Shown: one piece after another, positions 5,503-46,964 of the stretch | Position numbering within the stretch: the stretch's first letter is position 1 | How the letters are laid out: each line of letters opens with the position of its first letter | Origin: Bryopsis sp. KO-2023 | Taxonomy: Eukaryota; Chlorophyta; Ulvophyceae; Bryopsidales; Bryopsidaceae | Assembly (NCBI GenBank): GCA_030272585.1 | Contig: BSYQ01000008.1 | Span: forward strand, 4,774,001-4,838,000 | DNA: 64,000 bases | Direction of reading: 5' to 3' | Program-made: the position numbers and the translations under genes | The notes under the pieces: model-generated | The model's database searches: none | Told to the model about the DNA's origin: nothing | Seen by the model: the letters and a program-made list of their open reading frames with translations, nothing else

Positions 5503-6144
5503 ATGAGCGGACACGACGAGCAGCTATACCTGGAATACGGTATCGAAGACAATCAGCAAGAGCGCGACGCCCCAGATGGCCCGCCGCTATATCCGCTGAT
5601 CGTCGCCCAGGAATTACCTGCTGTCGGACTGCCGATACAAGCAGAAATGGACCGGCCATTACAGGCATACGGTATCCCCGCGCACCCGGACATGGTGGAG
5701 GAAGCAGGCGATGAGGAAGCGGACATTGGCCCGGAGTTTGATGAGGAGATGGAAGAAGAGCCAGGAGTCTTCATCAATCAACAAACGCAGCACCTGCAAC
5801 AGAGCCAAGTAAACGTGCATAACCAGACCCTGCACGTGCACAACGATGGCCTGCAGGAGCGCGACCTCCATGAATCGCAAGAGCGGTTATACAGCCAATT
5901 GTCCGAGGAGGCTGCCCAGCGGACAGCCCAGGTCGCCGAGCACCTTGATAGTCGGATGGAGGGAGCTTGTTCAAGCATGGCTTCCCAAGTATATGATGTG
6001 TTGGACTCTACTCTACAGTCCCGCCATCACCAGATCGAAGGACAGCTCAGTGAAAGGTTGGATGAGCGGATACAAGATCTGGATGCTGCAGCCAAGGGGA
6101 GGCTCAGCCAAATGGAAGCTGGCTTGGCGAATATCCGTGATGTC
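5503..6144 (+). CDS. gag: Element B gag, N-terminal part (split by element C)
   Basis: The frame opens at an ATG in good context (CACCATGAG) after a 490-bp leader and runs 214 codons to the C insertion. It resumes in frame at 27625 after one GATGTC copy, giving a gag of roughly 988 residues. This part is acidic and rich in Gln and Glu, with a long amphipathic stretch around residues 100-210 that looks like coiled coil, consistent with capsid self-assembly. Without the rest it would end a few codons into the LTR of C, so the present locus cannot make full gag. Confidence 0.85.
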
Positions 6145-6681
6145 TGTAACCACAAATAGGGTATCCTTGACCGCTGGGGTCACCCCTGCAGCCGTACTTA
6201 ACGGTGGTGATGGCGTTTCTGCAGAACGGGAACGGCGGAAGTGGGGACAGCCCCTCTTGAAGTTGATCACACGGCCTTTGCCAGGCACCTTACTCAGGAC
6301 TCTTCACACAAGCTTTCTTACAACAATCAATAAAGGTCCAAACTCGAATAAACACAAAAGCCTCACCCAGAATGCCCAATAACCTAAGATCAGCCATTAA
6401 ATAGGCTGCCGCCTGACTCACCCTAGTCCCACTGATCACCTAGGATCCCACCTACTGATGGGGACTACCTAACCTATCAAGCCTAGCTGATCTTCCTAAC
6501 CTCCCTCAATCCCTTCCCTTAGTCTCTACCCCTAGGACCGTCCAACCTCGTCATTTCCGCAGCTGGACTGCTACTTCCAGACTGTGGCTGGACTGTCCTA
6601 ACTACCCCTCCTCTACCCGATAGCACTCTGGCCTTGACCAGTGTGACGAAAACGGTGGAGGCGACGTGGTTTGGGGTTACA
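6145..6681 (-). repeat. Element C 3' LTR with terminal GGTTACA extension
   Basis: The 530-bp repeat at 6152-6681 equals 27089-27618. On the element strand it starts TGTAACCCC. It then ends in GGTTACA (6151-6145), which is not found at the LTR/primer-site junction of the 5' copy. A TATTTAA core-promoter-like motif near 6396-6402 is shared with element D. Confidence 0.88.
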
Positions 6682-6690
6682 GCTGTAACC
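6682..6690 (-). other. Element C internal GGTTACAGC nonamer between polypurine tract and LTR
   Basis: On the minus strand GGTTACAGC directly precedes the LTR start TGTAACC, forming the perfect palindrome GGTTACAGCTGTAACC (6675-6690). Its first seven bases reappear as the outer right end of the element. The same arrangement occurs in D (17115-17123) and, with one base changed in the LTR half, in E (42798-42806). Confidence 0.85.
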
Positions 6691-6704
6691 ACTCCCCTCC
6701 TCCC
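6691..6704 (-). other. Element C polypurine tract
   Basis: GGGAGGAGGGGAGT on the minus strand, immediately before the GGTTACAGC nonamer. It should prime plus-strand DNA synthesis. The identical tract is at 17101-17114 in element D. Confidence 0.8.
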
Positions 6705-7567
6705 TGAACTTTTGTCCCCAAAAGTTTTAACATCCCCTCCCCTCTTTTCTGAACTGTTTCTGTGTCTAGACTTCCATTTTCAAGATAACTAGGGTCAGAA
6801 CTGTTGGAGAAGTGGTGAATAGAAAGACCTAACTGCCTATTCAACCACTAAGTCCACAGATGCAGTGTCCCCAGTACTACAGAACAAGTGCTAAGTGCCA
6901 GTATGTTGGGATCCAAAATAAAAGTTTTTTTTTTTTTTTTTTTTCTCTCTTTTTTTTTTTTCAATTATCACTTTCTACACAACAGGAAAAATGTCTGTTA
7001 ACCTTGATAACACAAGCACAACACAATCCACAGCTGTTCTGTCAGCTTGTTCACTTCATCCCTAGAAATACTGAGCAACCTGCCTTCTCAGCAGCAAGCT
7101 TGTTCTCTTTTTTTTTTTTCTTTTCCAGGTCCAATAACCAGAGGTTTCTGTTTGTTTATTTTCCCCCCCCCCCCCTTTTTCATGCCTTCCCCCAAAAAGA
7201 TACCTATCCCATCAGACACCCACTCCTGCCACAGTGTTTTACTGCCTGCCCACTTCAGCAGCAGACAGTCTGTTCTCTAACCCTCATAGCAACTTGAAAT
7301 CATGTATCAAAAAGATTTAAGAAAGAACCCTGAACTCTGAACTCTTACTCTCTCTTCCTCACTTCCTTTTCTTTTCCATTCTTACTGGTCCAATCCAGTT
7401 CAGCTACTACTTTTCTTTGGGAAGGCTGTCTCTATAGCCATTCTCATGAAAACCAATAAAACAAAAACAAATAAAAACAATAAAAACAAAACAAACAGTC
7501 ACCCCTCCCCTCTTTTCTTCCTTTTTCTTTTTTTTTTTTTTTTTTTTCTTTTCACCTTCCCCCCTTT
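6705..7567 (-). other. Element C 3' untranslated region with purine tracts
   Basis: Between the stop of the last ORF (7568) and the polypurine tract. On the element strand it contains several long A or A/G runs and a G run (complements at about 6926-6960, 7110-7122, 7164-7177 and 7528-7552). No coding capacity is seen. Element D has shorter A-then-G runs in the same position. Confidence 0.6.
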
Positions 7568-9020
7568 TTAGGCTGTCGGCGGCGGCGGTGGTGGTGGTGG
7601 TGGCGGTCCTCCCTGACCTCCGCGACAGTGCTCCGGCGGCTCTCCTCCTGCTGCTGGATCGTCTGGACCTTCGTCTTCTCGGGGCCGCTTGGCTGCGCTG
7701 CCTCTCTCCAGGGGGATCTCGTCAGGGAACGGCCGACGGAGCTCGGGGTATCGCCCCCACATCTCCGCCGTCAGCGTGCGCCAGTATGCCGTCGTTGGGA
7801 AGTTTCTGGCTTCCGCTTCGCATCGCCAGCAGCGATTTTGGAAGACCTCGTCGGCGGTGATGCCAGGGCGATACTCCGGGATCCATGAAAGGTCCGCCGC
7901 CGGGATGTCCCCCAGCGTGAGTTCGCGTCCGCGGCAGAAGAGGTCGGGGCGCCGCAAGGCCACGAGGATGGCCAACACATCCTTGGCACACGCTTTCCAG
8001 GATTTTCCAAAGCGGTCTCGCGAGCAGTGTCGGTGGTGCCCGGGTGTGTTAGCAAACTTACAGGCGGTTGGGATGTACGCGTTGGAGCCGGGCGGTTTTG
8101 AACAACGGCTGCAACGCGTACCCATCCCTGGAGTGCCGCCGCCGCTGCTCTGGCCGTGCTGTCCCTTTCCATCACCCGGTGCTGTTCCGTCTGGGGGCCC
8201 TTCGTCCTCGCCAGTCTCCGTATCCGTTCCTGAAAAATCCAAGACGACCTTCTTGAGCTTCCCTTTTCCTGAGGCGAGTCTAGTGGTTGGGCCCTTCCTT
8301 GGCGCTCCTCCCTTCGATGCTGGAGTCCCGCTTTGGCTTAATCCCGGGGTAGTTCCTGTGGGAGTTCCTGCTCCGAACGCGAATGGGGCTTGGACATTCT
8401 GGAACATCTGGAAGGGGCGTGGTGGCCGAGGTCCCGCCATGGGTGGAGCTGGTGGTCTGATTGGCCCTGGTGGCAGCAAGACGAGTTGGGAGGCTGGAGG
8501 CACTTCCTCCGTCGTTGGGAGTTCAGCTGGTGGATCCTGGGGTCCTGCTTGCTCCGCTTGGTGGGCAAACGGAACTGGATCAGGTTCCTCCACACGAGGC
8601 TGTGACACCCTCTCCTCCCATCCTCTCCGGTAATGCATCCCAGGCAGCGGCTGGTGTCCCGCCAACGATCGATCTCTTTCCTCCCTCTGCACCTCCGCCC
8701 ATTCCTGAGCCGACAGTGGCTGTGGATGTGGTGGGCTTCCTGGGATCACATCAGCTGGAGCTGGGGGTTCATCCTCTGGTGTTGTTGGCTGCTCCTCCCC
8801 CACTTTCTCCCCAGTCCCTGCTTCACTCCCAACCAATCCTGAGCCTTCCCCCACTGTGGTTTCCTCATGCTGCCCCCCTCCTGTGGCTGCTGTTGCTGCT
8901 GTGGCTGCTGTTGCTGCTGTGGCTGCTGTTGCTGCTGTGGCTGCTGTTGCTGCTGTTGATCCCTCCAGACCTCCTTGTCCAGGCTGATGGAGTGGCTGTT
9001 CTCCTGTTAATGTTGCTGTA
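7568..9020 (-). CDS. Element C last ORF, C-terminal part: zinc-ligand-rich accessory domain
   Basis: This is the C-terminal 484 codons of the integrase-containing ORF, joined in frame to 17723-19797 once element D and one GCTGTA copy are removed. It holds an Ala-Thr-Ala repeat encoded by 18-bp units (8880-8960), then Pro- and acid-rich spacer. A cysteine/histidine cluster follows (about 8029-8126): CSRC, 13 residues, C, then HHRHC. About 75 residues later there is a second pair, CWRC. The tail is poly-Pro. No catalytic motif is recognisable. The clusters resemble those in the post-pol ORFs of B and F. Function is unknown; zinc and nucleic-acid binding is inference. Confidence 0.75.
8880..8962 (-). 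repeat. 18-bp microsatellite in element C last ORF
   Basis: Roughly four and a half units of CTGTGGCTGCTGTTGCTG on the plus strand, encoding an Ala-Thr-Ala run in the element C protein. Confidence 0.8.
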
Positions 9021-9606
9021 TGTAACCCCAAACCACGTCGCCTCGACCAATTTTGTCACCTCCAGGGCTAGAGTGATATCGGGGGAGGGAATGCTGCTTG
9101 AGGCAGTCCCAGACGGATTACGTAGGGCTAGCAGTCACCCCGGGACAGTTCTGCCATAGCAGTTCCGCCACAGTTTAGAAGTAGCAGTTCAGCTACAGAA
9201 ATGCCTAGGTTGGACGTTCCTAGGGGTTGGTGCTGAGGGAAGGGATTGAGAGTGGTTAGGAAGATCAACTAGGCTTGATGGGTTAGGAAGTCTCCATCAG
9301 TAGGTGGGATCCTAGGTGATCAGTGGGACCAAGGTGAGTCAGGCTGCAGCCTATTTAAACGGCTGATCTTAGGGTATTGTACTTCTTCTTGGTGCGGATC
9401 TTCTTGTTGTGGTTTGAGTTCGGACTTTGGGTTGTTGTAAGAGAGCTTTGAGAAAGGGACCTGAGTGGAGAGTATTATTGTGAACCCGTGTGATCAAACC
9501 CAAGGGGCTGTCCCCACTTCTGCCGTTCCAGTTCTGTAAAAACGCCACCACAACCGTTAAGTCCGGCTGCAGGGGTGACCCCAGCGGTCAAGGCGACGCA
9601 ATTTGT
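9021..9606 (+). repeat. Element D 5' LTR
   Basis: The repeat is 586 bp, starts TGTAACCCC and ends ATTTGT beside the primer binding site, without the terminal GGTTACA of the other copy. A CCTATTTAAAC promoter-like motif lies at about 9350-9360, followed by a GGCTGATCTTA block also present in the C LTR. Confidence 0.9.
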
Positions 9607-9618
9607 TGGTTTCGGAGC
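9607..9618 (+). other. Element D primer binding site
   Basis: TGGTTTCGGAGC directly after the last U5 base. Confidence 0.85.
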
Positions 9619-10085
9619 CCAGGCGCGCACACTTTTTAGCTGTGCTGCAGCAGACGTGCACTACGGCTCTGGCAGTCGTTATAAGTGGGCAGTCTGGACG
9701 AGCAAGACCTGAGAGTGAGAAAAGAAGCGGAGTAAGCTCTTGCAAGAGTGAAGAGAAGGACCCACAGGGGTGGATACGTTTCAAAAGGGTACAAGGTCGA
9801 GCTTGGGTCGCTCACAAGGGTGAAGAGAAGGCGAAAAAGCTTTGTGGGTTTCGGGATCTTGTGGGATCTTAACCTAAGGTTAGGTCAGAACTGCTGTTGG
9901 GTCGCTTTTGTCTTGTTTGGGCTGCAGCAAGGTCGAGAACAAATACAAGAAAGAGTGACGAACTGCATAAGGTGGAAAAAGAAGCAAGGGCAGTACTTAT
10001 CCGAGGTTTGGAGGAGAACAGAGGGTAAAAGAGAAGGATCACGACCAGAAGGGAGACTTGCCACTCAGATCTGTGGCGGCGCTGA
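9619..10085 (+). pseudogene. Element D leader with remnant of gag N-terminus
   Basis: The first part is still similar to the start of the C gag (shared GTGCTGCAGCAG..CGTGC and GGCAGTCTGGACGA blocks) but the frame is broken. A short open frame at 9603-9872 reads across the primer site and stops. D has thus lost the N-terminal gag segment that C retains. Confidence 0.45.
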
Positions 10086-13000
10086 AGGAAAAAGAAGATC
10101 TTGACGGAAAAAGTGAACGAGGAAGAAGAACCAAACGAGGAAGAAGGCCTTGGTGGTGCAGAAGGAGTGAACGTTGAGGTTTCTGAGGCACAAGGAAGTG
10201 TTGGTGCTTTTTCTGAGGCTGGTCTTGTTGACGACGAAGGGGTGTTGAAGGAAGACTTTCTTGGCGGCTGGGACAACGAGGAAGTGAACGAGGTTGACGA
10301 GAAAGAGGTTGTGATGGTCGAGAGTGTTCCCGAAGAACGTGAAGCAAGACAAGAAGACAGAGCTGCTGGAGACGAGGTTACGAGGGCAGAGGTAGACGAC
10401 GAAGTGGTTGCTGTCGTTAAAGAAGAAGAAGAGCAAGCAAGTGTTGACCCCACTGGAAGGGAGGTACAAGAAGGAAACCTCGTTGGCGTTACTGACCAAG
10501 GAGAAGCCGAGGTTGTCCAAGAGGAGGAAGAAGTGCTTGCGGAAGAAGTAAAAGAAGAAGATGAAGCAAGACGAGTGACCAAAGAAGAGGAGGAAGCCTT
10601 TGTTGAGCCAGAAGTTGTGGTTAAGGAAGAAGTCAAACAAGAAGAGGAAGAAGAGAGCAGTGTTGCTGCAGGGAACGGAGGAAATGGAGGCGCTACCAAC
10701 GAGCCCTCGAGTTCCAGTTCCGACGAAGACAAACCTGAAGGGGAAAGAGACAAGAGGGAGACATCCTCTAGTTTCGAGGAAGAGCCTGTGCCCCCAATAC
10801 ATCCACCACTGAACCCATTTGCCTTTGCTGCCAGTCTCCCCCAGATTCCTCCAATTGTGCCACCTGGTCCAGTTGTTCCACCCGTTCCACCAAGACCTCC
10901 TGTTCCACCACCAGTTTGTCCACCGACTCCAGGCAGTGGCGGCGCCATGATACATCCAGCAGAAGGACTTCCTAATCGGTTGACTGACAGTCATTTACCC
11001 GCATTTACGGGTGCAGAGGCAGAAGATGTGGCCACCTGGTTACGTTCCTATGGGATCCTCGCTGAAGGCTCTGGCTGGAATGTACCCCCAGCAGTGCAGC
11101 CACACGAAGACGAGAGGATAGAGAGACTGGTCCGCTATACAGCCGGGGAGGCTCGGTCATGGGTTGACAATTGGATATCCAGACATCCAGCCCTTGTGGA
11201 AGGAGTGCCAAACCCATTGAGGACGTGGCAGAAGTTGCAAACGGACATGCTGGCCTGGTTTGGAGTTGCCCCAGCAACACCAGTAGCCCATACCTTGGAG
11301 CAAAGCCGGAAGGGTGATGAAACAGTGGACGAGTATACATCTGTGCCATCCCAAGGGCAACAGCAAGTGGAAGCGAACAGAGTACCAGGCAATCCAGCCG
11401 TGGCAGATGGGTCCTTACTTCGATCGAACAAGGATGGAGCTCAGGGGGAGTTGACACCCATACTTCATGCACCCACGGAGGATACTTTGGAGGGAGTCAG
11501 TGCCAGAGCCAGACAAGTTGAGAAGAGACAAGTGGACCCCAGTTCCACCCTGAAGGAAGTGACGGTCCCAGCAACCGAACTGATGGGAGAACTGCAGGAG
11601 CATGCAGCATTGGAGCCTGTTTTGGCAGAAGTGGGCGTTATGGATCGGAGAGTAAATGGGCAAATTGACAGCCTAAGGAAGGAAATGCGTGATCACAAAA
11701 TTGTGACGGATTCAAGACTTCGAGGAGTGGAGCAGCAAGTGAGAATATCTGGGCGGCAGTATAGCGAACTCAGGAGGATGATCTCCGCCTTGACAGAAAG
11801 GGTAGCAGATATGCGACAATCGGAAGAACCCGAGCTGGCAGGGGTGAGCCATGGCATTACTGAAGACGCTGGAGCGGATGGAATACTTACCAATGGAGAA
11901 AGAGGCCGGGGAAGGAACAGAGGAAATGAATGGAGGAGAAGGAGTGGAAGGATAGACATGAGCGAAGTCACGTGTTGGCATTGCTTAGACCTTGGACATT
12001 ACAGAAGAAATTGTCCCAACCAAATGCAGAGTTTCCAAGCAGAACTGGAAGATCAGTTGATTATGGATTTCGAGCAGACCGACCCAGTGACAGCAGCCAT
12101 GAAGGAACCAGAGGAAGTCATGGCATCAATCTTGTACTCTGCTATGGATGTCGACAATGGAGCAATGGACAGTGCCCAAGGAAGCAATGGAGGGACTCCT
12201 GTGGATACGAGCTCAATACCCTCAGAACCGCAAGCAACTACTGCAGAAGATGTTGTAATGGAGGAACTGAAAGAGCAGCCAAACCTTGAATCAAAGAAAG
12301 AGCCAGAAGGGATTCCAAAGCGATTGCCGAAGCCAGAAGATGTGCCACAAGGATCCAAGCCAGTTGTGATGCCGCCATTGATGCATAGACCGATGCAAGT
12401 ACCATCGCCCAGAAATACCATGGCAAAGAAGAAGAAGATGGTCAAGAAATCAACAGTGAAGCCACAGGAGAAGCGCATGTTTACTACAGCGGAAGCCAAG
12501 AAGCTTGTGGAAGGACTGACTGCAGAAGTATCGGTAGCAAACCTTTGTCAGCACCACCCGGAGTTGATCGACGCTTGGCTGAAGGCATTAAGGGTGCCCA
12601 TGGCGAAAGTCCCAGCAGTTACCACCATGGCAGAAGTGGACAAGACAAGCTCATATGCAGTCACTACAGCCACAGCCAAAGTGATGGAAACGAAAGTGCC
12701 AGGAGCAATCATTGACACCGGAGCGAGTGCATGCGTTATATCAGCAAAACTCCTAGCACAAACGGGGTTAACACATCTGATGGAGGCACCAAAGGGAAGG
12801 TACCGGGACTGCAATGGAGAGACTCGGCAGGCAGTAGGATACATCCCTGCCCTACCTATCGCCCTTGGGCAGAGCAAACAAATGGTACCGTGCCATGTGG
12901 TGGAGAACAGCCACTTCTCCTTGATCATTGGGACTCCGTGGCTAGGGGAAGCGGGGGCGGAAATCGACTACGGGCGCAAAAAGCTCACTCCGTACATGGC

Positions 13001-13649
13001 GGGACAACGCATGGGTGGCGTGCCGATCGAGTTCATCCACTCTGTAACGCCTGCAACTGCTGCAGTCGTCTCTGTCTACCAGACCCTCCGCCACATCGAA
13101 GAATCCAGTCCTGCACCAGCACAACCACCCCCTTCTACCGGGGAACTTTTGCAGCCAAACTCAAGGACGACTCATGATGATCTGAACCAGCCCAACGCCG
13201 CCAGTCGACATCCACCGACCCTCCGGCTTACATACTACCAAGCAAGGGTGCTGCAAGAGTGCTACACCATGCGTCGGGAGAACGGGATGAGTGAGGCAGC
13301 AGCCTCACACCTCCACCAGCAAGAGATGGAGTTACTGGATGCAAGAAGAGGGCACCATTTGAAAATACAAAAAGAGAACGAAGGGAGTTTGGAGGAAACA
13401 CTGCGAAGGGAAGGAAAACAGGGGAGAAGGAATGGTGTAACAGAGGAATACATGCGGAGGCGGGAGGCACTGAAACAACAAGAAAACGAGGAGCTCAAAA
13501 AGCTATTGGAACACTTCCGGGAAACTGCACAATCATGGAGGCCAACAGGAGGGGCTGCAACAGGAGTGCCTCCAGCAGCGGCCGCAACCGGAGAGAAAGG
13601 AGGGAGTGAGCCACCTCGGGTGGTGAGCTACACAACGTCGGATTTTTGA
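10086..13649 (+). CDS. gag: Element D gag-protease polyprotein
   Basis: Open from after the TGA at 10083. The first in-frame ATG is at 10314 and a second at 10947, where C also has its first Met. The N-terminal third is Glu- and Val-rich and contains one copy of the acidic unit that is amplified in C. A Pro-rich linker follows. The capsid-like region is about 10980-11800. A CCHC zinc knuckle (CWHC..GH....C) lies near 11974-12015. The aspartic protease carries DTGAS near 12715-12730. Gag packages RNA and the protease cleaves the polyprotein. The frame ends GAT TTT TGA, where the RT frame overlaps at -1. Confidence 0.85.
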   Translation, partial: RKKKILTEKVNEEEEPNEEEGLGGAEGVNVEVSEAQGSVGAFSEAGLVDDEGVLKEDFLGGWDNEEVNEVDEKEVVMVESVPEEREARQEDRAAGDEVTRAEVDDEVVAVVKEEEEQASVDPTGREVQEGNLVGVTDQGEAEVVQEEEEVLAEEVKEEDEARRVTKEEEEAFVEPEVVVKEEVKQEEEEESSVAAGNGGNGGATNEPSSSSSDEDKPEGERDKRETSSSFEEEPVPPIHPPLNPFAFAASLPQIPPIVPPGPVVPPVPPRPPVPPPVCPPTPGSGGAMIHPAEGLPNRLTDSHLPAFTGAEAEDVATWLRSYGILAEGSGWNVPPAVQPHEDERIERLVRYTAGEARSWVDNWISRHPALVEGVPNPLRTWQKLQTDMLAWFGVAPATPVAHTLEQSRKGDETVDEYTSVPSQGQQQVEANRVPGNPAVADGSLLRSNKDGAQGELTPILHAPTEDTLEGVSARARQVEKRQVDPSSTLKEVTVPATELMGELQEHAALEPVLAEVGVMDRRVNGQIDSLRKEMRDHKIVTDSRLRGVEQQVRISGRQYSELRRMISALTERVADMRQSEEPELAGVSHGITEDAGADGILTNGERGRGRNRGNEWRRRSGRIDMSEVTCWHCLDLGHYRRNCPNQMQSFQAELEDQLIMDFEQTDPVTAAMKEPEEVMASILYSAMDVDNGAMDSAQGSNGGTPVDTSSIPSEPQATTAEDVVMEELKEQPNLESKKEPEGIPKRLPKPEDVPQGSKPVVMPPLMHRPMQVPSPRNTMAKKKKMVKKSTVKPQEKRMFTTAEAKKLVEGLTAEVSVANLCQHHPELIDAWLKALRVPMAKVPAVTTMAEVDKTSSYAVTTATAKVMETKVPGAIIDTGASACVISAKLLAQTGLTHLMEAPKGRYRDCNGETRQAVGYIPALPIALGQSKQMVPCHVVENSHFSLIIGTPWLGEAGAEIDYGRKKLTPYMAGQRMGGVPIEFIHSVTPATAAVVSVYQTLRHIEESSPAPAQPPPSTGELLQPNSRTTHDDLNQPNAASRHPPTLRLTYYQARVLQECYTMRRENGMSEAAASHLHQQEMELLDARRGHHLKIQKENEGSLEETLRREGKQGRRNGVTEEYMRRREALKQQENEELKKLLEHFRETAQSWRPTGGAATGVPPAAAATGEKGGSEPPRVVSYTTSDF

Positions 13650-15664
13650 GTGGGCCGGCCACCGACGTCCTCCTTCGTCGACACCTGGAGGGGTGGCGGA
13701 AGTGGGTCGGTCCAGAAAGACAAAAGAAAAGAAAAAGAAAAAGGAGGAGACGAGGCAAACGTGGGGGACGGAAAGAGCAATGGCGTCGATCAGGGAGGCG
13801 GATCAAGGAGCAGGAATGGAGAATGAAACGCCAAGGGCAAGAAATAGAACGAGCGAATCGGCGGTGGCCAGACTCTTGGGCCAGACAGTGTTTGAGTCAC
13901 AGCAGAAAAGTGGAGGCAGAAATTCTGATGAGACAAGAGATAAAAGAAAGGGAAGAAAGGGAAGAAGAAGGAAAAAGAAATACAAGAGAAAAAGAAGGGA
14001 AAGGGAAAAGAACAGGAAATGGAAAAAGAAAAGAAAAAGGGGAAGAGAGTTTGGGGTTACAAGGGACTGAACAGGCAGCAGTTCAGCTGCAGGAAAACCA
14101 AATTTGGGCAGGGGTTGCTCCCCTAGGGACTTCGGAGGTAGAAAATAAAACGTTTGCCACAGAGAAGGAAAAAGAAAAAGAACAGGTGTCACTTAGAGAA
14201 AAACTAGAGAACCTTAAAATCAGCTCCCACCTTACCCCACAACAACGGAAGGAGTTACTGGACTTGCTCGAAGAATATCCGGACGCCTGTGCTTGGTCCT
14301 CGGATCAAGTGGGCCAAACCAACGTCCTATACCATGAGATCCCAACCGGTGATCACCTCCCTATCAGGCAAAATCCCTACCGCTTCAGCTTCGCCGAGAA
14401 CCAAGTGGTGAAGTCAGAAGTGGCGAAGATGCTCTTGGATGGAGTGGTCCGGAAGTCGAAATCCCCGTGGGCCTCACCGATTGTTCTAGTGCCAAAGCCG
14501 GATGGAGCCGTGCGATTTTGTGTGGACTACCGCAAGCTAAACAAGATCACGACCCGGGATAGCTTCCCTCTTCCACGGATAGAGGATGCCATCAACCAGT
14601 TTTCGGAGGCGAAGTTCTTCTCGGCCCTGGATCTGCGATCGGGATACTGGCAGGTTCGCATGAGTCCTGCTGCAGCAGAAAAGACGGCCTTCATCACCCA
14701 AGAGGGACTCTACGAGTTTGTGGTGATGCCTTTTGGACTCAGTAACGCTCCAGCAACGTTCCAAAGGATGATGAACGAAGTATTGGGACCTATGCTGTGG
14801 AAGGGAGTCATTGTGTACCTGGATGATATCGTCATCTATGCAGATACGTGGGAGAAACATCAGGAGCTTTTGGCAGAAGTGCTGCAGCGGTTGAAGGAAG
14901 CCAACTTACGGATCAGCCCAAGCAAATCGGATTTTGGGTTTGAAGAGCTGCTATACTTGGGCCATGTTGTGGGCAAAGGGGAGATAAAAATGAATCCAAA
15001 GAAAGTGGCGACGGTGGAAATGCAGGTGCCACCGACGGATGTGTCTGGACTCCGGTCCTTCCTTGGCCTAACTTCTTACTACAGGAGATTTGTGCGCGAC
15101 TACGCGAAGATCGCTGCACCCCTGACAGAGTTGCTGAAGAAGAATGTGCCGTTCGTGTGGGAGGAACGCCATGATTGGGCCTTTGAAAAGTTAAAGAGGA
15201 GTATCACAGACCAACCTGTCCTAACCCCACCTCAGCCACATCTGCCCTACATCCTACAGACAGACTGGAGCAGTAAGGCTGTTGGAGCGGTGTTATGCCA
15301 GAAGGATGAACAAGGACTGGAGCATGTGGTAGCTTATGCCAGCAAAAGTCTCAATCCTGCTGAGAGGAATTATTCTGCAGTGGAAGGGGAGTGCCTAGCA
15401 GTGGTGTGGGCTTGCACCTTATTTCGGCCATACATCTACGGAACGGAATTTGTGCTGCAGACTGATCAAAGAGCCTTACAATGGTTGATGACGGGTACCA
15501 AACTGACGGGGAAACTGATGAGGTGGGCACTCCGCCTACAAGAGTTTGATTTCACGATTGAGTTCCGCGCTGGGAAGAGTAACGCAAATGCGGATGCACT
15601 GACAAGGCTTCCAGTTCCGCTGGACCATCCAATAGTCAGTGGTTCCACAGCGCTTCGTCCATGA
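13646..15664 (+). CDS. pol: Element D reverse transcriptase-RNase H
   Basis: The frame overlaps the gag stop in the -1 register and is open for 672 codons. A Lys/Arg/Glu-rich linker comes first. The RT follows with the FCVDYRKLNK motif near 14515-14545, LDLRSGYWQ, FGLSNAPATFQ, and the catalytic YLDD near 14815-14830. RNase H starts near 15240 (TDWSS, with conserved E and D residues) and ends at the DALTRLP stretch. No start codon is needed if a -1 frameshift joins it to gag. No integrase follows in the same frame, which is unusual for Ty3/gypsy pol. Intact RT alongside a broken integrase suggests D was copied with its own RT but integrated in trans. Confidence 0.88.
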   Translation: MSGPATDVLLRRHLEGWRKWVGPERQKKRKRKRRRRGKRGGRKEQWRRSGRRIKEQEWRMKRQGQEIERANRRWPDSWARQCLSHSRKVEAEILMRQEIKEREEREEEGKRNTREKEGKGKRTGNGKRKEKGEESLGLQGTEQAAVQLQENQIWAGVAPLGTSEVENKTFATEKEKEKEQVSLREKLENLKISSHLTPQQRKELLDLLEEYPDACAWSSDQVGQTNVLYHEIPTGDHLPIRQNPYRFSFAENQVVKSEVAKMLLDGVVRKSKSPWASPIVLVPKPDGAVRFCVDYRKLNKITTRDSFPLPRIEDAINQFSEAKFFSALDLRSGYWQVRMSPAAAEKTAFITQEGLYEFVVMPFGLSNAPATFQRMMNEVLGPMLWKGVIVYLDDIVIYADTWEKHQELLAEVLQRLKEANLRISPSKSDFGFEELLYLGHVVGKGEIKMNPKKVATVEMQVPPTDVSGLRSFLGLTSYYRRFVRDYAKIAAPLTELLKKNVPFVWEERHDWAFEKLKRSITDQPVLTPPQPHLPYILQTDWSSKAVGAVLCQKDEQGLEHVVAYASKSLNPAERNYSAVEGECLAVVWACTLFRPYIYGTEFVLQTDQRALQWLMTGTKLTGKLMRWALRLQEFDFTIEFRAGKSNANADALTRLPVPLDHPIVSGSTALRP

Positions 15665-17100: not shown

Positions 17101-17114
17101 GGGAGGAGGGGAGT
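17101..17114 (+). other. Element D polypurine tract
   Basis: GGGAGGAGGGGAGT, identical to the tract of element C. Confidence 0.8.
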
Positions 17115-17123
17115 GGTTACAGC
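17115..17123 (+). other. Element D internal GGTTACAGC nonamer
   Basis: GGTTACAGC lies between the polypurine tract and the LTR start TGTAACC, giving the palindrome GGTTACAGCTGTAACC at 17115-17130. Its first seven bases recur at the outer end (17710-17716). Confidence 0.85.
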
Positions 17124-17716
17124 TGTAACCCCAAACCACGTCGCCTCGACCAATTTTGTCACCTCCAGGGCTAGAGTGATATCGGGGGAGGGAATGCTGC
17201 TTGAGGCAGTCCCAGACGGATTACGTAGGGCTAGCAGTCACCCCGGGACAGTTCTGCCATAGCAGTTCCGCCACAGTTTAGAAGTAGCAGTTCAGCTACA
17301 GAAATGCCTAGGTTGGACGTTCCTAGGGGTTGGTGCTGAGGGAAGGGATTGAGAGTGGTTAGGAAGATCAACTAGGCTTGATGGGTTAGGAAGTCTCCAT
17401 CAGTAGGTGGGATCCTAGGTGATCAGTGGGACCAAGGTGAGTCAGGCTGCAGCCTATTTAAACGGCTGATCTTAGGGTATTGTACTTCTTCTTGGTGCGG
17501 ATCTTCTTGTTGTGGTTTGAGTTCGGACTTTGGGTTGTTGTAAGAGAGCTTTGAGAAAGGGACCTGAGTGGAGAGTATTATTGTGAACCCGTGTGATCAA
17601 ACCCAAGGGGCTGTCCCCACTTCTGCCGTTCCAGTTCTGTAAAAACGCCACCACAACCGTTAAGTCCGGCTGCAGGGGTGACCCCAGCGGTCAAGGCGAC
17701 GCAATTTGTGGTTACA
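17124..17716 (+). repeat. Element D 3' LTR with terminal GGTTACA extension
   Basis: 17124-17709 equals the 5' LTR. 17710-17716 is GGTTACA, followed by the target duplication GCTGTA. Confidence 0.9.
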
Positions 17717-17722
17717 GCTGTA

Positions 17723-19797: not shown

Positions 19798-19983
19798 TCT
19801 CCTTTGACCTCCTCCTTTGATCACGGCAGCAACTGTGGCAAATCACGAAGTCCGAACGGTCACGGTGTTCCACGCTACTTTTTCGGGGTTCGTGTGGCCT
19901 TGCCTTCAGTCTAGAAGTACCCCCATTGGACCAACAATGGTTCCTCTTTTTCCAGCCATGATCTTGAGATCCCCGGAAGATCC

Positions 19984-27053: not shown

Positions 27054-27076
27054 AGCTCAAAAGTGTGCGCACCCTG

Positions 27077-27088
27077 GCTCCGAAACCA
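27077..27088 (-). other. Element C primer binding site
   Basis: TGGTTTCGGAGC on the minus strand, immediately after the 5' LTR copy. Confidence 0.85.
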
Positions 27089-27618: not shown

Positions 27619-27624
27619 GATGTC

Positions 27625-36393: not shown

Positions 36394-36565
36394 TGATACG
36401 TTCGCACTCATTTTGCAGTACGAGTGTGTAGTACGGGTTAGTACGGGTTCTAGGGGGTTAAGTTCAGAGAGAACACCTTGTAAAATTAATTCTCTGGTTT
36501 GTGAAAGTGTGTGACCCCAGTCTCAACTTCAGCAACGACTCACTAAAACCTACAGGGACCTAACA
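36394..36565 (+). repeat. Element B 3' LTR
   Basis: The 172-bp LTR equals 4829-5000 and is followed by the target duplication CTCAA at 36566-36570. Confidence 0.9.
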
Positions 36566-40416: not shown

Positions 40417-40424
40417 TCAAAGAA

Positions 40425-42127: not shown

Positions 42128-42304
42128 ACTGTTTAGAACCTCTCCTGCACGACCTTGTCGCCCCAAAAGAAGCCCCCTGGACAGCCCCTTGAAGTCCTTT
42201 AACCCTCCAACCCCATGGGTCCCATCAACCACGTGGAGGAACCTAGCAAGCTAGGCGGACACCCTGTCCAGTCACATCACCCATCAGGGGGATGTGACAT
42301 CGAC

Positions 42305-42797
42305 TGTAACCATCCTTTGGGTGCGCCTTGCAGGCGATGGGTCAGGTGTTTCTTAGCAGGAAACGCTGCAAATCGAAAACCTTATACCCTTTATCGTTTC
42401 AACTAGGAGAGCTCGGTGAGAGGTCGGAATACAAGAGCTTTGGACGACCAAAAGCGTGGAGACTGAGGCACAAGTCGAACATGAACAAAAAGTGGTTACA
42501 AGGAAGAATAAAAACCCCCTTCTCTTATAGGGTAAAAGAGCCACTTCTTAGCTACTCATTTGTACAAAGTAGCTACCCCGTAGCTACCCATTTCTAATAC
42601 CCTAGCTTCACCCAACTACCCTTTATTAACTATTACCAACCCTTACAAATTGGAGGTACTCAGTGAGAAATACTGAGTACTGTTTCCTAAGTTTCACTGT
42701 TTCTGATAACATAAGCAGGACTTCTGAACGTCCTTCCCAGTACTGCAAGAGGAGCTGGACCCTTCTCCTGCCACAGACCCTTAAAATGCAGGTCACA
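42305..42797 (-). repeat. Element E 3' LTR with terminal GGTTACA extension
   Basis: 42312-42797 equals 46406-46891. On the minus strand it starts TGTGACC and ends AAGGAT, followed by GGTTACA (42311-42305). Confidence 0.88.
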
Positions 42798-44295
42798 GCT
42801 GTAACCCACTTCGTTTCCACTGTGAAGTACTCCGAATTTCATACCATCTACTCAGATGGTCTGCAACAAAATTGGCTTTCCCATCTATGTGTCTTACGGA
42901 GATACTTGAACAACCGCTGAACTGCAAATTTTCTTTGATTCCCGTTACTGCTCGCAAAGTTCTCAAATCTTTAATCGGTGTTGCCTCTTTCCCCTCTTGG
43001 GTAAGGTGTGCCCATAAACTTTTCACTGCTGCCCAATTATCGGAGAAAATCTGAACAGCAGTTCCTCTCCACAAATCTGCGGGTATTTCCTTAACGGCGC
43101 TCATGGCTGCCAATACTTCCCCCAAAAAACTTGAATGTTGTCCACTTATTTTTCCATGTCCGAGGTATAAAATCCTTCCCGAACCATCGGTCAAAATATA
43201 CCCGAAATACTCTGAGGTGTCGATAGAAGCCCAATCAACGAACAGCTTCCTTTGATTATCGCCGGCAGAAAATGCTCGGCAATAGCAACGACTCAACCAA
43301 CGCGATACCTTACTTTTCAGTTCTTCCTTTACCTCTTGTGGCGATACTTGATTGGCTTCCATCTTAGCCAAGAAATGCTGCATGTCCCATTCCAGAGTCG
43401 AGTTCTTGAAAGCATTCAGCAAACCGCGGAGCTGCTGAATCTCCCGCAGTTCTGCCGATCCCACCAGCTTGGCAATAGTTTCGTTCACTTTTTCCCACGG
43501 TATATCCGGGTGGAATTTTCCTTCTTGGATATGGAATCCGAGAAACTTTACCTCAGTTCCGCTGACGATTTTCCTCTGGTTGATCTGAAGTCCATACTCC
43601 TTGCATCGAGAAACGACCTTTTCGAAATTCTGGAAGCACTCCTCCACAGTAGCGCCGCCAATGAGCAGATCATCCATGTAACGGCGGAACTCTTCCAAAC
43701 CTTCGAATACACGGCACATCTTGTCGTTGAATACTCTAACGGACCAAGAAGTACCGTGGGGGATGGTGCTATTGACGAACTCTTTGCTCCCCACTTTGAA
43801 CGCCGTTAGTGCCTTGACCTCCTTCTTTATCGGCACTTTATTGTATGCCTTGGCTACATCCACGACGATGAAGTATTTCCATTTCCTTGGAATCGATCTC
43901 ACGAGTCTTCTTGCGTCCTGAATGCCCGGTTGATGCTCATCGCTGCCGTAGGTGTTGAGCTTCCTGAAGTCTATGATCGGTCTTGGCCCCTTTCTCCTTT
44001 CGCAGTAGCTTATCTGAGATGGATTCCAGTATACGCCTTGAGGGTAGTCCTTCCGATGCAGCGGTTCAATGAACCCGAGCTCCACTTGTTCCTTTAGCCA
44101 TTTCTGCACTTGTTCTTCGGATAATCGCTGGTCTTGAATACTCCTTTGAGGGACGTTTGACTTCGGCGGCTCTCTCCTATAGCCGCATTCCTCCAGCGAT
44201 ACTGCCATTTCCGCCATTTTAGTCTTCTGCGGAGGTACTAGAGTCCCGAAGACCTCCGGGTGTTTCCTCACCATTTCTTTCAGCGCTTCCGCCAT
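42793..44295 (-). CDS. pol: Element E reverse transcriptase-RNase H
   Basis: 500 codons from ATG at 44295. The frame is open upstream to the gag stop in the -1 register (AAC TAA read as AAA CTA). RT has the RPIIDFRKLN motif (near 43975) and catalytic YMDD (near 43675), with VDVAKAYNKVP as the palm lead-in. RNase H begins near 43240 (FVDWASID), and later Glu and Asp residues are in place. The frame runs past the polypurine tract and stops within the LTR palindrome. The RT is divergent from those of B, C, D and F. No integrase follows. Confidence 0.85.
   Translation of the reverse strand: MAEALKEMVRKHPEVFGTLVPPQKTKMAEMAVSLEECGYRREPPKSNVPQRSIQDQRLSEEQVQKWLKEQVELGFIEPLHRKDYPQGVYWNPSQISYCERRKGPRPIIDFRKLNTYGSDEHQPGIQDARRLVRSIPRKWKYFIVVDVAKAYNKVPIKKEVKALTAFKVGSKEFVNSTIPHGTSWSVRVFNDKMCRVFEGLEEFRRYMDDLLIGGATVEECFQNFEKVVSRCKEYGLQINQRKIVSGTEVKFLGFHIQEGKFHPDIPWEKVNETIAKLVGSAELREIQQLRGLLNAFKNSTLEWDMQHFLAKMEANQVSPQEVKEELKSKVSRWLSRCYCRAFSAGDNQRKLFVDWASIDTSEYFGYILTDGSGRILYLGHGKISGQHSSFLGEVLAAMSAVKEIPADLWRGTAVQIFSDNWAAVKSLWAHLTQEGKEATPIKDLRTLRAVTGIKENLQFSGCSSISVRHIDGKANFVADHLSRWYEIRSTSQWKRSGLQL
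42798..42820 (-). other. Element E GGTTACAGC nonamer and polypurine-like tract
   Basis: On the minus strand GTGGAAACGAAGTG (42820-42807) precedes GGTTACAGC (42806-42798) and the LTR start TGTGACC, a palindrome with one mismatch pair. The tract is less purine-pure than in C and D. Confidence 0.65.
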
Positions 44296-44357
44296 GGACT
44301 CTTTTTCTTGTTCGGATCTAGTCAGGCCCGCCCGAAGTCCCCTTTCGACGGGCCTTT

Positions 44358-46328
44358 TTAGTTTGATACCTCTCGGTCATTGAACTTGACCACCCCTTCG
44401 TGAGCAAAGGTTGCAACCTTGTAATTGCTCGGCAACTGCACTGGTAACTCGTTCCAGTTCCCTATCTGCACGCGGAAATACTGCCCGCGATAATTAAGTC
44501 CGGCATGGATGGCGATACTGCTCCCAGTTGGCACTACTGGCTTCAACTCGATTTCCTTGGAAGCCTTGATAGGTATCCACACGGTTGACAACGAGTGAGG
44601 TCGAAGGACGAGATTTCTCCCCAGCGGCACTGAATAGTAGTTCTCGGCAACGTTGATTATCTTCAAGTGACGCTTGGCAGAAGTGAGATCCAGGCTTTCT
44701 CCTTCCACTGGTTCTCTTTCTGGAAGAACCACTTCTTCTGGCAACCGTGTTACCATGCACTGCAGCGTTTTTCCGGATCCGATACTGATCCTCTTCCTCC
44801 GTACATCAATAACCGCGTTCAAGGAGTTGAGTATCGGCATTCCAACCAATAACTCATAGCCGGGCTCCTTCATCACATAAAAATCTGCGGAAACCTTCTT
44901 CCCCTCGGTGCCTATCTTGATGGAAGAAATGCTGCCTTCGGTTTCCACAGTCCTGCCATCAGCAGTTTTTATCTTGCCGGGTCCTCCCTCTTGTGTCGGC
45001 GAGACTCCCAATCTCTTTGCCAATCCGGAAGACATCACATTCACCGCGGCTCCCGTGTCGATGATTGCAAATTCCTCCACGCTCTCGGCAGCAGTGGATA
45101 CAAGGGACATTTTGGTGGTAAGCAGTCCTGCTGATCTCCCCACGGTCAATACTTCTTTGTAAGTTTTGCTTGTCGTGATTCCTCCGCATCCGGTGGATTT
45201 GGGAATCTTCTTTTGTTTGGGTCCTGTAGCAGTTTTGCTCTGGCGGTACTGCGTTCTTTCAGACTTCCTCCACTTCTTCGTTGGCACTTTCTCCACAGGT
45301 GCAACCGAGATAGTCCCGACATAGTTTGTCTCGGGTTGGTAGAGGTCTTCTTCTTCCAATCCCTCAAAATCATTGTGATCTTCGAAATGGGGTTCCTCGA
45401 ATTGGACCGTTCTTGCGGCCATTCCACGATATGGTGTACCACTTCTCCTGTATCCTCCAGTGTTTCTGGAACCACTGTTGCCTGCATTTCCGCTGCTTCC
45501 GTTTCTGGCCAACCAGCTCAAAAATCCACGAAATCTTCTGTCTCTCTTGCTCAATTGAGTGATGAAAAACTTGAGCGAGCCGAATGGTACCTCTTTTAGC
45601 TTCTGCTGCCAATCAGTTGGCGGCATATCTCCCTGTCTCACGGGTGTTTCCGTTTCTGCTGTTGCAGTACTGCCCATCGCTTCTCCTACGGCTCCAATGT
45701 CCATCGCGTCCCCTTGGAGTTTCGCTGTTGTATCTTCGAGGCGAAACACGTTGATGATCCATTCCTTTGCGTTTGCGATGGCGTCTACGTATGTGGCAGT
45801 CACCATTGCTGCCGTTCCGACTCTGCAATCCTTTGGAAGTAGTTTGAAGAAAATTTCTTTTATTTTCGCATCATCCACATCCTGTTCCACTGCCATTGCT
45901 TCTTGGCGAAACTGCTCGATCCACTGCAGCCACGTTTGCCCCTTTTTCTTGACACATTTGCGAAGGACTGCTTCCTTTTCTGAAGGACTCTCCAAGATAG
46001 CTCTTTCCGTTACGAGAAATCCTGCCACGTTCATCTTTAACGCATCAATATTTCCAGCCACTGCTGCTGGAGAAGCTGTGGGCCTCCCGTGTGATCCTGG
46101 AGGATACGCTGCGTCGAAGTCGGCCATCAGAACATTGTTAACTTCGTACAGTATTGCCAAAATATTCTCTCCGGGTCCTTCTGGGACATAGTGGTCCACC
46201 ACTGATGCGCAGAACTGCTGGTATGTCGCGTAGATCCTTGAGCGCTGAAACGCATACCGGAAATTTCTGGAAGTGATAGTCTCATATCGACATATCTTAT
46301 CCAGAGATGGTGATGGTATCCCCGCCAT
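44358..46328 (-). CDS. gag: Element E gag-protease
   Basis: First ATG at 46328. The frame is open up to and across the primer binding site. The N-terminal half is helical and of gag type without a zinc knuckle. The C-terminal part is an aspartic protease with IIDTGAAVNVMS (near 45070) and the flap/second Gly region GMPILNSLNAVID (near 44830). The leader before the ATG is only about 65 bases. It ends at 44358 with AAC TAA, where the RT frame overlaps. Confidence 0.78.
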   Translation of the reverse strand: MAGIPSPSLDKICRYETITSRNFRYAFQRSRIYATYQQFCASVVDHYVPEGPGENILAILYEVNNVLMADFDAAYPPGSHGRPTASPAAVAGNIDALKMNVAGFLVTERAILESPSEKEAVLRKCVKKKGQTWLQWIEQFRQEAMAVEQDVDDAKIKEIFFKLLPKDCRVGTAAMVTATYVDAIANAKEWIINVFRLEDTTAKLQGDAMDIGAVGEAMGSTATAETETPVRQGDMPPTDWQQKLKEVPFGSLKFFITQLSKRDRRFRGFLSWLARNGSSGNAGNSGSRNTGGYRRSGTPYRGMAARTVQFEEPHFEDHNDFEGLEEEDLYQPETNYVGTISVAPVEKVPTKKWRKSERTQYRQSKTATGPKQKKIPKSTGCGGITTSKTYKEVLTVGRSAGLLTTKMSLVSTAAESVEEFAIIDTGAAVNVMSSGLAKRLGVSPTQEGGPGKIKTADGRTVETEGSISSIKIGTEGKKVSADFYVMKEPGYELLVGMPILNSLNAVIDVRRKRISIGSGKTLQCMVTRLPEEVVLPEREPVEGESLDLTSAKRHLKIINVAENYYSVPLGRNLVLRPHSLSTVWIPIKASKEIELKPVVPTGSSIAIHAGLNYRGQYFRVQIGNWNELPVQLPSNYKVATFAHEGVVKFNDREVSN

Positions 46329-46393
46329 TCTTCCTTGTAGTCTTTGGAGTAGTCTTCCACGAAAACTTAAGTTCTCCAGAACGCTGTAACCTG

Positions 46394-46405
46394 GCTCCGA
46401 AACCA
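46394..46405 (-). other. Element E primer binding site
   Basis: TGGTTTCGGAGC on the minus strand. It is followed two bases later by another GGTTACAGC (46391-46383). Confidence 0.85.
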
Positions 46406-46891
46406 ATCCTTTGGGTGCGCCTTGCAGGCGATGGGTCAGGTGTTTCTTAGCAGGAAACGCTGCAAATCGAAAACCTTATACCCTTTATCGTTTCAACTAG
46501 GAGAGCTCGGTGAGAGGTCGGAATACAAGAGCTTTGGACGACCAAAAGCGTGGAGACTGAGGCACAAGTCGAACATGAACAAAAAGTGGTTACAAGGAAG
46601 AATAAAAACCCCCTTCTCTTATAGGGTAAAAGAGCCACTTCTTAGCTACTCATTTGTACAAAGTAGCTACCCCGTAGCTACCCATTTCTAATACCCTAGC
46701 TTCACCCAACTACCCTTTATTAACTATTACCAACCCTTACAAATTGGAGGTACTCAGTGAGAAATACTGAGTACTGTTTCCTAAGTTTCACTGTTTCTGA
46801 TAACATAAGCAGGACTTCTGAACGTCCTTCCCAGTACTGCAAGAGGAGCTGGACCCTTCTCCTGCCACAGACCCTTAAAATGCAGGTCACA
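46406..46891 (-). repeat. Element E 5' LTR
   Basis: 486 bp. A TATAAG box lies on the minus strand near 46619-46624. It is followed outward by the duplication ATCGAC. Confidence 0.88.
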
Positions 46892-46964
46892 ATCGACCAC
46901 CCACTACACCACGCCACCCACGTGGCTAGTGGAGGCGGCACACTCAGGCAAGGAGGGCATAACA

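What the first reader, a model, noticed from the sequence alone, without database searches (positions are those of the whole stretch)
6139..46897. Split terminal repeats in three DDE-integrase-type LTR elements (C, D, E)
In C, D and E the LTR beside the primer site and the outer 3' LTR differ in a consistent way. The outer right end carries GGTTACA after U5, absent at the LTR/primer-site junction. The same GGTTACA, followed by GC, lies between the polypurine tract and the LTR start TGTRACC, forming GGTTACAGC/TGTRACC. The outer left end begins at TGTRACC. Written A-interior-B-A-B, this is a split direct repeat as in the tyrosine-recombinase retrotransposons PAT, Ngaro and Chlamydomonas TOC1, yet C has a DDE integrase and all three have 6-bp target duplications. 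Normal reverse transcription cannot place GGTTACA after U5. A circle or concatemer junction (U5 joined to GGTTACAGCTGTRACC) cut at the palindrome centre, losing GC, yields exactly the observed ends with canonical TG..CA.
Basis: partly seen in the sequence, partly recalled or inferred. Interest (0 to 1): 0.93.

Follow-up and report, generated by a model that had tools for sequence, protein, structure and literature searches.

The report
Retrotransposons integrating from joined cDNA ends
In a green alga (Bryopsis), a group of virus-like jumping genes carries end sequences best explained if the two ends of the DNA copy are first joined (most simply into a circle) and then cut open at a nearby site before insertion, a route proposed for retroviruses in the 1980s and since regarded as a dead end.

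Summary
Elements C (6145-27618, -), D (9021-17716, +) and E (42305-46891, -) have left end TGTRACC, inner 5' LTR ending at the primer site, inner 3' junction PPT-GGTTACA-GC-TGTRACC, outer right end U5-GGTTACA, and exact 6-bp target duplications. In the same genome (Bryopsis sp. KO-2023, by a 100% identical HSP90) 84 of 96 junctions followed to the right show U5-GGTTACA. All 31 single insertions read at both ends have split ends (30 exact TSDs). Where the two arms differ, the outer right arm copies the inner left arm, not the reverse complement of the left end: F6 GGTCACA (9 of 9 in one scan), F7-F10 AGGGACA, AGCTTTGACA, GACCGATTGCA, GATCCGTGACA. The join falls at both predicted cDNA termini and carries 1-2 extra bases in 18 of 77 copies, like end-joining. 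Integrases of six split families form one group with intact DDE; three ordinary elements in the window have ordinary ends. Best explanation: cDNA ends are joined (most likely a 2-LTR circle) and integrase cuts at CA-NN-TG inside the left-end sequence. The tyrosine-recombinase comparison is structural only; a full palindrome is not required. No 1-LTR-circle product was found.

The parts
6139..6144 (.). TSD copy of element C (GATGTC), partner 27619-27624
6145..6151 (-). C outer right arm GGTTACA, directly after U5
6152..6681 (-). C 3' LTR (starts TGTAACC at 6681)
6682..6683 (-). C GC spacer between inner arm and LTR start
6684..6690 (-). C inner arm GGTTACA, just 3' of the polypurine tract
7568..9055 (-). 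C: 495-aa open frame on the far side of the D insertion (its first bases lie in D's LTR), no Pfam match; probably the rest of the integrase ORF (inferred)
   Evidence: other copies have 1178-1184 aa frames
17578..19842 (-). C integrase ORF (H2C2 zinc finger, rve core, DDE intact), interrupted by D
19984..22035 (-). C reverse transcriptase-RNase H ORF
21996..27056 (-). C gag-protease ORF with a 90-bp tandem repeat array
27076..27088 (-). C primer binding site TGGTTTCGGAGCC, abutting U5 with no GGTTACA
27089..27618 (-). C 5' LTR, outer left end TGTAACC at 27618
27619..27624 (.). TSD copy of element C (GATGTC)
9015..9020 (.). TSD copy of element D (GCTGTA), partner 17717-17722
9021..9606 (+). D 5' LTR, outer left end TGTAACC
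9607..9619 (+). D primer binding site TGGTTTCGGAGCC
10086..13649 (+). D ORF with aspartyl protease (gag-protease)
13610..15664 (+). D reverse transcriptase-RNase H ORF; no integrase ORF found after it
17115..17123 (+). D inner arm GGTTACA plus GC, just 3' of the polypurine tract
17124..17709 (+). D 3' LTR
17710..17716 (+). D outer right arm GGTTACA after U5
17717..17722 (.). TSD copy of element D (GCTGTA)
42299..42304 (.). TSD copy of element E (ATCGAC), partner 46892-46897
42305..42311 (-). E outer right arm GGTTACA after U5 (GGAT)
42312..42797 (-). E 3' LTR (starts TGTGACC at 42797)
42798..42806 (-). E inner arm GGTTACA (42800-42806) plus GC (42798-42799)
42793..44376 (-). E ORF with reverse transcriptase core; no integrase match
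44358..46475 (-). E ORF with aspartyl protease
46393..46405 (-). E primer binding site TGGTTTCGGAGCC
46406..46891 (-). E 5' LTR, outer left end TGTGACC at 46891
46892..46897 (.). TSD copy of element E (ATCGAC)

Best explanation
C, D, E and their relatives are Ty3/gypsy-like LTR retrotransposons that integrate from end-joined cDNA. Plus-strand priming at the polypurine tract starts upstream of the LTR, at arm-NN-TG..., so the linear cDNA begins with arm-NN-TG and ends at U5 without a terminal CA. The two termini are joined, most likely within one molecule to a 2-LTR circle, with occasional 1-2 extra bases. The DDE integrase recognises the composite site [U5 - join - arm..CA]-NN-[TG - U3], cuts 3' of each CA (removing the 2-bp spacer) and inserts the resulting TG..CA ends with a 4-6 bp TSD. 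The arm thereby moves from the left edge of the cDNA to the right edge of the integrated copy (A-interior-B-A-B). Shown by sequence: the end structure, the arm swap, the position and looseness of the join, TSDs, intact DDE residues. Inferred: the cDNA termini, the circle itself, who joins the ends, and that integrase does the cutting.
For: (1) 31 of 31 single insertions read at both ends have left TGTRACC and right U5+(0-1 nt)+GGTTACA; exact 6-bp TSD in 30, one base off in 1 (L072); a tandem copy (L022/L023) shares one TSD. (2) Of 96 PPT junctions followed to the right (of 118 counted, 100 listed), 84 show U5+arm. (3) Arm swap: E-type inner GGTTACA/TGTGACC gives outer GGTTACA in 5 of 5 (E itself included); F6 inner GGTCACA/TGTAACC gives outer GGTCACA in 8 of 8 loci and in 9 of 9 right ends of a genome-wide pattern scan, 7 of them the same copies, 0 GGTTACA; F7 AGGGACA 3 of 3 right ends, F8 AGCTTTGACA 1 of 1, F9 GACCGATTGCA 2 of 2, F10 GATCCGTGACA 1 of 1. 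(4) The join lies where U5 meets the tRNA site and where the PPT ends; 59 of 77 copies exact, 12 +T, 2 +A, 2 +G, 1 +C, 1 +GT (4 copies of a TTATTTGG subfamily set aside; the inner U5 end was read in the same copy only for the pairs, five of the 18 with extra bases among them). (5) In 6 of 10 families the terminal inverted repeat continues in register, or with a small gap, across the join into U5 (shuffle p 0-0.006), while the PPT-side flank shows this in 0 of 10 and three ordinary elements in 0 of 3. (6) U5 lacks a terminal CA in the families whose inner end was read, whereas three ordinary elements in the window end in CA, have identical inner and outer ends and 5-bp TSDs. (7) DDE residues intact in six split families, which form one group in a tree (96/88). 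(8) Always the element's own arm, where it can be told, speaks for joining within one molecule.
Against: No circle or join was seen outside chromosomes; all evidence is from integrated copies. The identical 16-bp palindrome at PPT/LTR gave no integrated 1-LTR product (two matches, one unrelated and one a mutated junction; only flanks starting A, C or T and the GGAGT-type PPT were tested) and no LTR-LTR tandem (0), so something beyond the palindrome must decide the cut. The inverted repeat across the join is not significant in F8 and F10 and marginal in C (0.053) and F7 (0.097). 9 of 96 right ends gave no readable end; one of them (L153) reads U5 followed by unrelated sequence. Of 10 distant copies whose ends I fetched, 4 gave no LTR pair (L092/93, L100/101, L102/103, L108/109), though L108 alone shows a right end. 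The single F10 copy shows no TSD. Retrovirus experiments found 2-LTR junctions poor substrates (titles in the reference list of PMC1180852).
Confidence: 0.82

Rival explanations
1. Joined ends, but in linear head-to-tail concatemers of different cDNA molecules rather than circles; integrase cuts two neighbouring joins.
For: Gives the same ends for one family. Tandem copies exist (L022/L023 with one shared TSD).
Against: Random mixing would give F6 copies the commoner GGTTACA arm; 9 of 9 have their own GGTCACA, and C-type U5 with GGTCACA is 0. The L022/L023 tandem has a single LTR between its two interiors, as homologous recombination would give, not a two-LTR join. Concatemers made only of one family are not excluded.
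Confidence: 0.12
2. The right arm is made by reverse transcription: minus-strand synthesis starts from an alternative primer ending in the reverse complement of the arm, so the linear cDNA already ends in U5-arm.
For: In C/D/E the arm read with the preceding T (TGGTTACA) resembles the start of the primer site (TGGTTTCGG).
Against: F7-F10 arms do not resemble the primer site, yet equal the inner arm in the copies read. Extra A, C or G before GGTTACA would break a CCA-ended primer. The primer-site start TGGTTTCGGAGC is shared by the families read.
Confidence: 0.04
3. The GGTTACA at the right end is an inverted repeat kept matched to the left end by gene conversion or selection for symmetry.
For: In C and D the ends are a perfect 7-bp inverted repeat.
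Against: Where the arms differ (E, F6, F7-F10) the right end follows the inner left arm, not the reverse complement of the left end.
Confidence: 0.01
4. Split direct repeat of a tyrosine-recombinase retrotransposon (PAT/Ngaro type).
For: Same A-interior-B-A-B layout (the PAT/Ngaro layout is recalled).
Against: DDE integrase, 6-bp TSDs, no tyrosine recombinase among Pfam matches.
Confidence: 0.01

Closest known systems
Prototype foamy virus (spumavirus) integrase cutting 2-LTR circle junctions (PMC1180852; abstract, passages and section 9 read)
   Same: Integrase cuts a joined LTR-LTR site 3' of CA on both strands with only 2 bp (CA-NN-TG) lost, giving both processed ends in one step. PFV integrase is the best solved-structure match by sequence for C and F10 integrases.
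   Different: In PFV the palindrome is made by the two LTR ends meeting, so (my inference) integrated proviruses look ordinary. Here the cut lies 7-11 bp to one side of the join, so the integrated copies record it. The PFV likeness is not specific: an ordinary integrase in the window scores higher against PFV, though best against Ty3.
Circle-junction integration model for retroviruses (Panganiban and Temin; recalled, and mentioned for SNV/RSV/ASV/ALV in passages of PMC1180852)
   Same: Joined LTR ends as the integration precursor.
   Different: Given up for retroviruses on experimental grounds (recalled; titles of Lobel 1989 and Ellis and Bernstein 1989 seen in PMC1180852's reference list). 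Here integrated copies themselves carry the trace.
Copy-out/paste-in insertion sequences (ISCth4, IS30 in passages of PMC7780238; IS3 recalled)
   Same: DDE enzyme, joined ends with a short spacer as donor, spacer lost on insertion.
   Different: No RNA stage; the transposase makes the junction itself and the spacer comes from flanking DNA. Here the spacer is element sequence and the join would come from cDNA ends.
Ty3/gypsy LTR retrotransposons
   Same: Gag, aspartyl protease, RT-RNase H, H2C2 plus rve integrase, tRNA primer site, polypurine tract, LTRs.
   Different: U5 lacks a terminal CA; arm and 2-bp spacer between PPT and LTR; inner and outer right LTR ends differ.
DIRS/PAT/Ngaro tyrosine-recombinase elements; Chlamydomonas TOC1
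   Same: Split direct repeats, circular DNA intermediate (DIRS-1: passage of PMC5633606).
   Different: Different recombinase class, and those elements lack TSDs (recalled). TOC1's enzyme and ends could not be checked here.

Membership tests
Ty3/gypsy LTR retrotransposon | RT-RNase H of Ty3 type followed by H2C2/rve integrase | tested here: met
   C; integrase frame after RT in the same element; D and E lack integrase
Ty3/gypsy LTR retrotransposon | tRNA primer site directly after U5, PPT before the 3' LTR | tested here: met
   the tRNA itself was not identified (none in the window)
Ty3/gypsy LTR retrotransposon | inner and outer LTR ends identical, TG...CA | tested here: not met
   outer ends are TG..CA but the inner U5 end lacks arm and CA; ordinary elements A, B and the chromovirus meet it
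Tyrosine-recombinase retrotransposon (PAT/Ngaro/DIRS) | tyrosine recombinase | tested here: not met
   no such Pfam match in the ORFs scanned; DDE integrase present
Tyrosine-recombinase retrotransposon (PAT/Ngaro/DIRS) | no target-site duplication | tested here: not met
   6-bp TSD exact in 30 of 31
Tyrosine-recombinase retrotransposon (PAT/Ngaro/DIRS) | split direct repeats A-B-A-B | tested here: met
Spumavirus-like junction cutting | CA-NN-TG junction with 2 bp lost | tested here: met
   (sequence evidence only)
Spumavirus-like junction cutting | purified integrase cuts the joined substrate | not testable with these tools
   bench assay
Copy-out/paste-in transposition | circular intermediate with joined ends as donor | not testable with these tools
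   no extrachromosomal DNA data held; only integrated traces

The most novel reading that the evidence does not exclude
A whole clade of LTR retrotransposons has moved its integrase attachment site off the cDNA termini, so that the joined-end (2-LTR) circle, not linear cDNA, is the obligatory integration substrate. The right-hand integrase site (U5 plus arm) does not exist until the ends are joined and, in most families, is kept by selection as an inverted repeat that spans the join. This makes them retro-elements with a copy-out/paste-in-like circular step.
Probability: 0.7. Interest if true: 0.93.

Novelty: new variant of a known kind. Interest (0 to 1): 0.87.

Why it matters
Linear cDNA is taken to be the integration substrate of LTR elements and retroviruses, and 2-LTR circles are called dead ends. 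Here integrated copies carry a trace of a join between their two cDNA termini, in about ten families and dozens of insertions. This makes an old, abandoned question (can joined ends be the integration precursor?) directly testable in a living system. It also shows how an element could tolerate imprecise end-joining: by placing the cut site 7-11 bp away from the join. It would add a third way, beside linear integration and tyrosine recombination, for a reverse-transcribed element to enter a chromosome.

Tried and rejected
Looked for 1-LTR-circle insertions (PPT-GGTTACA at a target site): none; two matches were an unrelated site and a mutated junction. Looked for LTR-LTR tandems with U5-GGTTACAGCTGTAACC: none. 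Looked for mixed-family joins: none in 9 F6 right ends, none for C-type U5 (the F6 pattern misses copies with G at the tenth flanking base, such as L047, which also has GGTCACA). Searched viral contigs for relatives outside this genome: none confirmed. Protein relatives of C's integrase elsewhere are at most 36% identical and cover at most 49% of it (7995 best candidates scored); no related element outside Bryopsis could be examined. A first guess of 5' ends from integrase distance failed. A PFV-specific kinship of the integrases was considered and dropped: an ordinary integrase scores higher against PFV. An earlier count said E-type outer arms 6/6; the correct count is 5 of 5. Element E was cut one base short and corrected. 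A tandem (L126/L127) looked like a dimer insertion but its flanks differ.

Paper searches made. Their listings (titles and starts of abstracts) show no split-LTR element with a DDE integrase. That covers open-licence PMC text only; of the listed papers I looked into three (PMC1180852, PMC5633606, PMC7780238), none in full.
Full report
WHAT IS THERE. The window lies in a 91-Mb, 28-contig eukaryote genome. Its HSP90 is 100% identical to a protein of Bryopsis sp. KO-2023, a green alga. C (outer, minus strand, 6145-27618) contains D (plus strand, 9021-17716), which interrupts C's integrase frame; E (minus strand) is 42305-46891. C encodes gag-protease, RT-RNase H and a DDE integrase. D and E keep protease and RT but no integrase among their Pfam matches, so they probably borrow one (inference). 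LTR pairs are 99.6-99.8% identical, so the insertions look recent.

THE END STRUCTURE. In each element the 5' LTR runs from TGTRACC to U5, which abuts the primer site TGGTTTCGGAGCC with no GGTTACA. The 3' side reads polypurine tract, GGTTACA, GC, TGTRACC...U5, GGTTACA, target site. Both outer flanks carry the same 6-bp target duplication.

IS IT GENERAL? The junction GGTTACAGCTGTRACCYC occurs 118 times in the genome and its reversed control never; 100 places were listed. I followed 96 of these to the right; two more listed places are C and D themselves, two were not fetched, and 18 were not listed. 81 read U5 + 0-2 nt + GGTTACA and 3 more (L010, L119, L122) the same arm after a different U5. 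3 are inner LTRs followed by the primer site (tandem layout; L023, L126, L140). 9 had no readable end (L007, L114, L120, L151-L153, L162, L164, L165), one of which (L153) has U5 followed by unrelated sequence. For 33 junction/left-end pairs, C, D and E included, I read both sides. Thirty-one are single insertions and all have the split ends; TSDs are exact in 30 and 5 of 6 in one (L072). The other two (L022 and L023) form one tandem copy whose outer flanks share the TSD CACGAT. These pairs were chosen because junction and primer site could be matched, so broken copies are under-represented.

THE DISCRIMINATING TEST. If the right-hand arm were simply an inverted repeat of the left end, it should be the reverse complement of TGTRACC. 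If it is the stretch between PPT and LTR, carried over by joining, it should equal the inner arm. The two predictions differ where the arms differ. E type: inner GGTTACA, LTR start TGTGACC, outer right GGTTACA in 5 of 5. F6: inner GGTCACA, LTR start TGTAACC, outer right GGTCACA in 8 of 8 loci and in all 9 matches of a genome-wide pattern that allowed either arm (7 of the 9 are the same copies); one F6 copy read on both sides has the TSD AAGGAC. More distant families found through their integrases (39% to 31% identical to C's) behave alike in the copies that could be read: F7 inner AGGGACAGC/TGTGGGT, outer AGGGACA in 3 right ends, TSDs GTTGTG and GTGGTG in the two read on both sides; F8 inner AGCTTTGACAGC/TGTGGCAG, outer AGCTTTGACA, TSD CCCAC (a 6-bp reading is possible because of a shared A); F9 inner GACCGATTGCAGA/TGTCGTCGG, outer GACCGATTGCA, 4-bp TSDs CTGC and GCAG; F10 inner GATCCGTGACAGC/TGTCATAG, outer GATCCGTGACA, no TSD found. 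Of ten such distant copies fetched, four gave no LTR pair. The constant rule is arm..CA-NN-TG; F9 shows that neither the palindrome nor GC is needed.

THE JOIN. The arm starts where plus-strand synthesis would start (3' edge of the PPT) and follows U5 where minus-strand synthesis starts (edge of the primer site); both positions are predicted from the sequence, not measured. Among 77 copies with the common U5 end the join is exact in 59, and carries +T in 12, +A in 2, +G in 2, +C in 1 and +GT in 1 (four copies of a TTATTTGG subfamily set aside). In the pairs the inner U5 end of the same copy was read and five extra-base joins stand (L012, L021, L026, L076, L084); for the others the family's U5 end is assumed. 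Two of the 9 F6 ends have +T. Looseness at just this point, 7 bp inside a sharply defined end, is what end-joining of linear cDNA followed by a cut nearby would leave. The +T class may reflect one primer-tRNA base left on, or PPT cleavage one base earlier; I cannot tell.

SIGNS THAT THE JOINED SITE IS WHAT INTEGRASE SEES. The termini of the modelled linear cDNA show no shared inverted repeat beyond chance in 9 of 10 families (F7: p 0.034). The joined right end does: beyond the arm, U5 mirrors the left LTR start with p 0-0.006 in D, E, F4, F5, F6 and F9, marginally in C (0.053) and F7 (0.097), not in F8 and F10. The PPT flank shows this in 0 of 10 and three ordinary elements of the window in 0 of 3 (1000 shuffles each; C, D, F4 and F5 are related, so not independent). 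This would explain why the same 16-bp palindrome next to the PPT is not used: I found no insertion of 1-LTR type and no U5-palindrome-LTR tandem. The first test covers C/D-type PPTs and flanks not starting with G.

CIRCLE OR CONCATEMER. Where it can be told, copies carry their own family's arm (F6 9 of 9 although GGTTACA junctions are far commoner; C-type U5 with GGTCACA 0), which favours joining within one molecule or particle. A circle is the simplest form, but it was not observed.

CONTROLS AND KINSHIP. Elements A, B and the chromovirus in the same window have a primer site with the same start, U5 ending in CA, no arm at the outer end, identical inner and outer LTR ends and 5-bp TSDs. Integrases of six split families form one group (96/88) apart from the window's ordinary ones and from 33 public relatives in the tree (several long branches, F9 among them). 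The DDE residues are present in all six. Target sites have a pyrimidine-purine centre (95% C/T then 98% A/G in 81 right flanks), as is usual for integrases (recalled).

COMPARISON. The nearest described system is foamy virus integrase, which in vitro cuts the 2-LTR junction after both CA with two bases lost (PMC1180852; abstract, passages, section 9). There the claim rests on enzyme assays and DNA measurements, and other retrovirus work speaks against circles as precursors (reference titles). Copy-out/paste-in insertion sequences (PMC7780238, passages) work alike without RNA. Tyrosine-recombinase elements share only the A-B-A-B layout.

VERDICT. What is missing is the extrachromosomal molecule and the enzyme assay.

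Noticed in passing
window 204-41430: Nested insertions: element A (LTRs 206-824 and 40812-41430, TSD CTCAA) holds B (LTRs 4829-5000 and 36394-36565, TSD CTCAA), which holds C, which holds D.
   Followed up: partly
window 92-121: Right end of an F6-family copy (U5-GGTCACA) just outside element A.
   Followed up: yes
window 46383-46391; L053, L066, L068, L069: In E and F4 the same 9 bases GGTTACAGC as the PPT-side arm plus spacer stand one base after the 13-nt primer site; no explanation.
   Followed up: no
window 25187-26386 and 50105-50536: Tandem repeats (90-bp units inside C's gag ORF; 54-bp units near the start of the chromovirus pol ORF).
   Followed up: no
G000 C-family copies, e.g. C6:4656274-4658412: Many copies carry an open frame of 1178-1184 aa starting with integrase; the long C-terminal part has no Pfam match in the piece tested (window 7568-9055).
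   Followed up: no
L022/L023 (C3:701-726 kb): Tandem LTR-interior-LTR-interior-LTR with one shared TSD CACGAT; a second tandem (L126/L127) has unlike flanks.
   Followed up: partly
L097 (C2:530000-536300): F10 copy with a 408-aa integrase ORF but short interior, no TSD, and a reverse-complement copy of its own arm in the left flank; could be self-integration or a second end.
   Followed up: no
L153 (C9:4152085-4152325): One F4-type right LTR end followed by TTGCTC instead of the arm, 12 bp from another element's end; possible true exception or rearrangement.
   Followed up: partly
left-end loci; window elements A, B, chromovirus: Split and ordinary LTR families share the primer-site start TGGTTTCGGAGC, and several split families seem to have a short inverted repeat right after it (by eye).
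   Followed up: no
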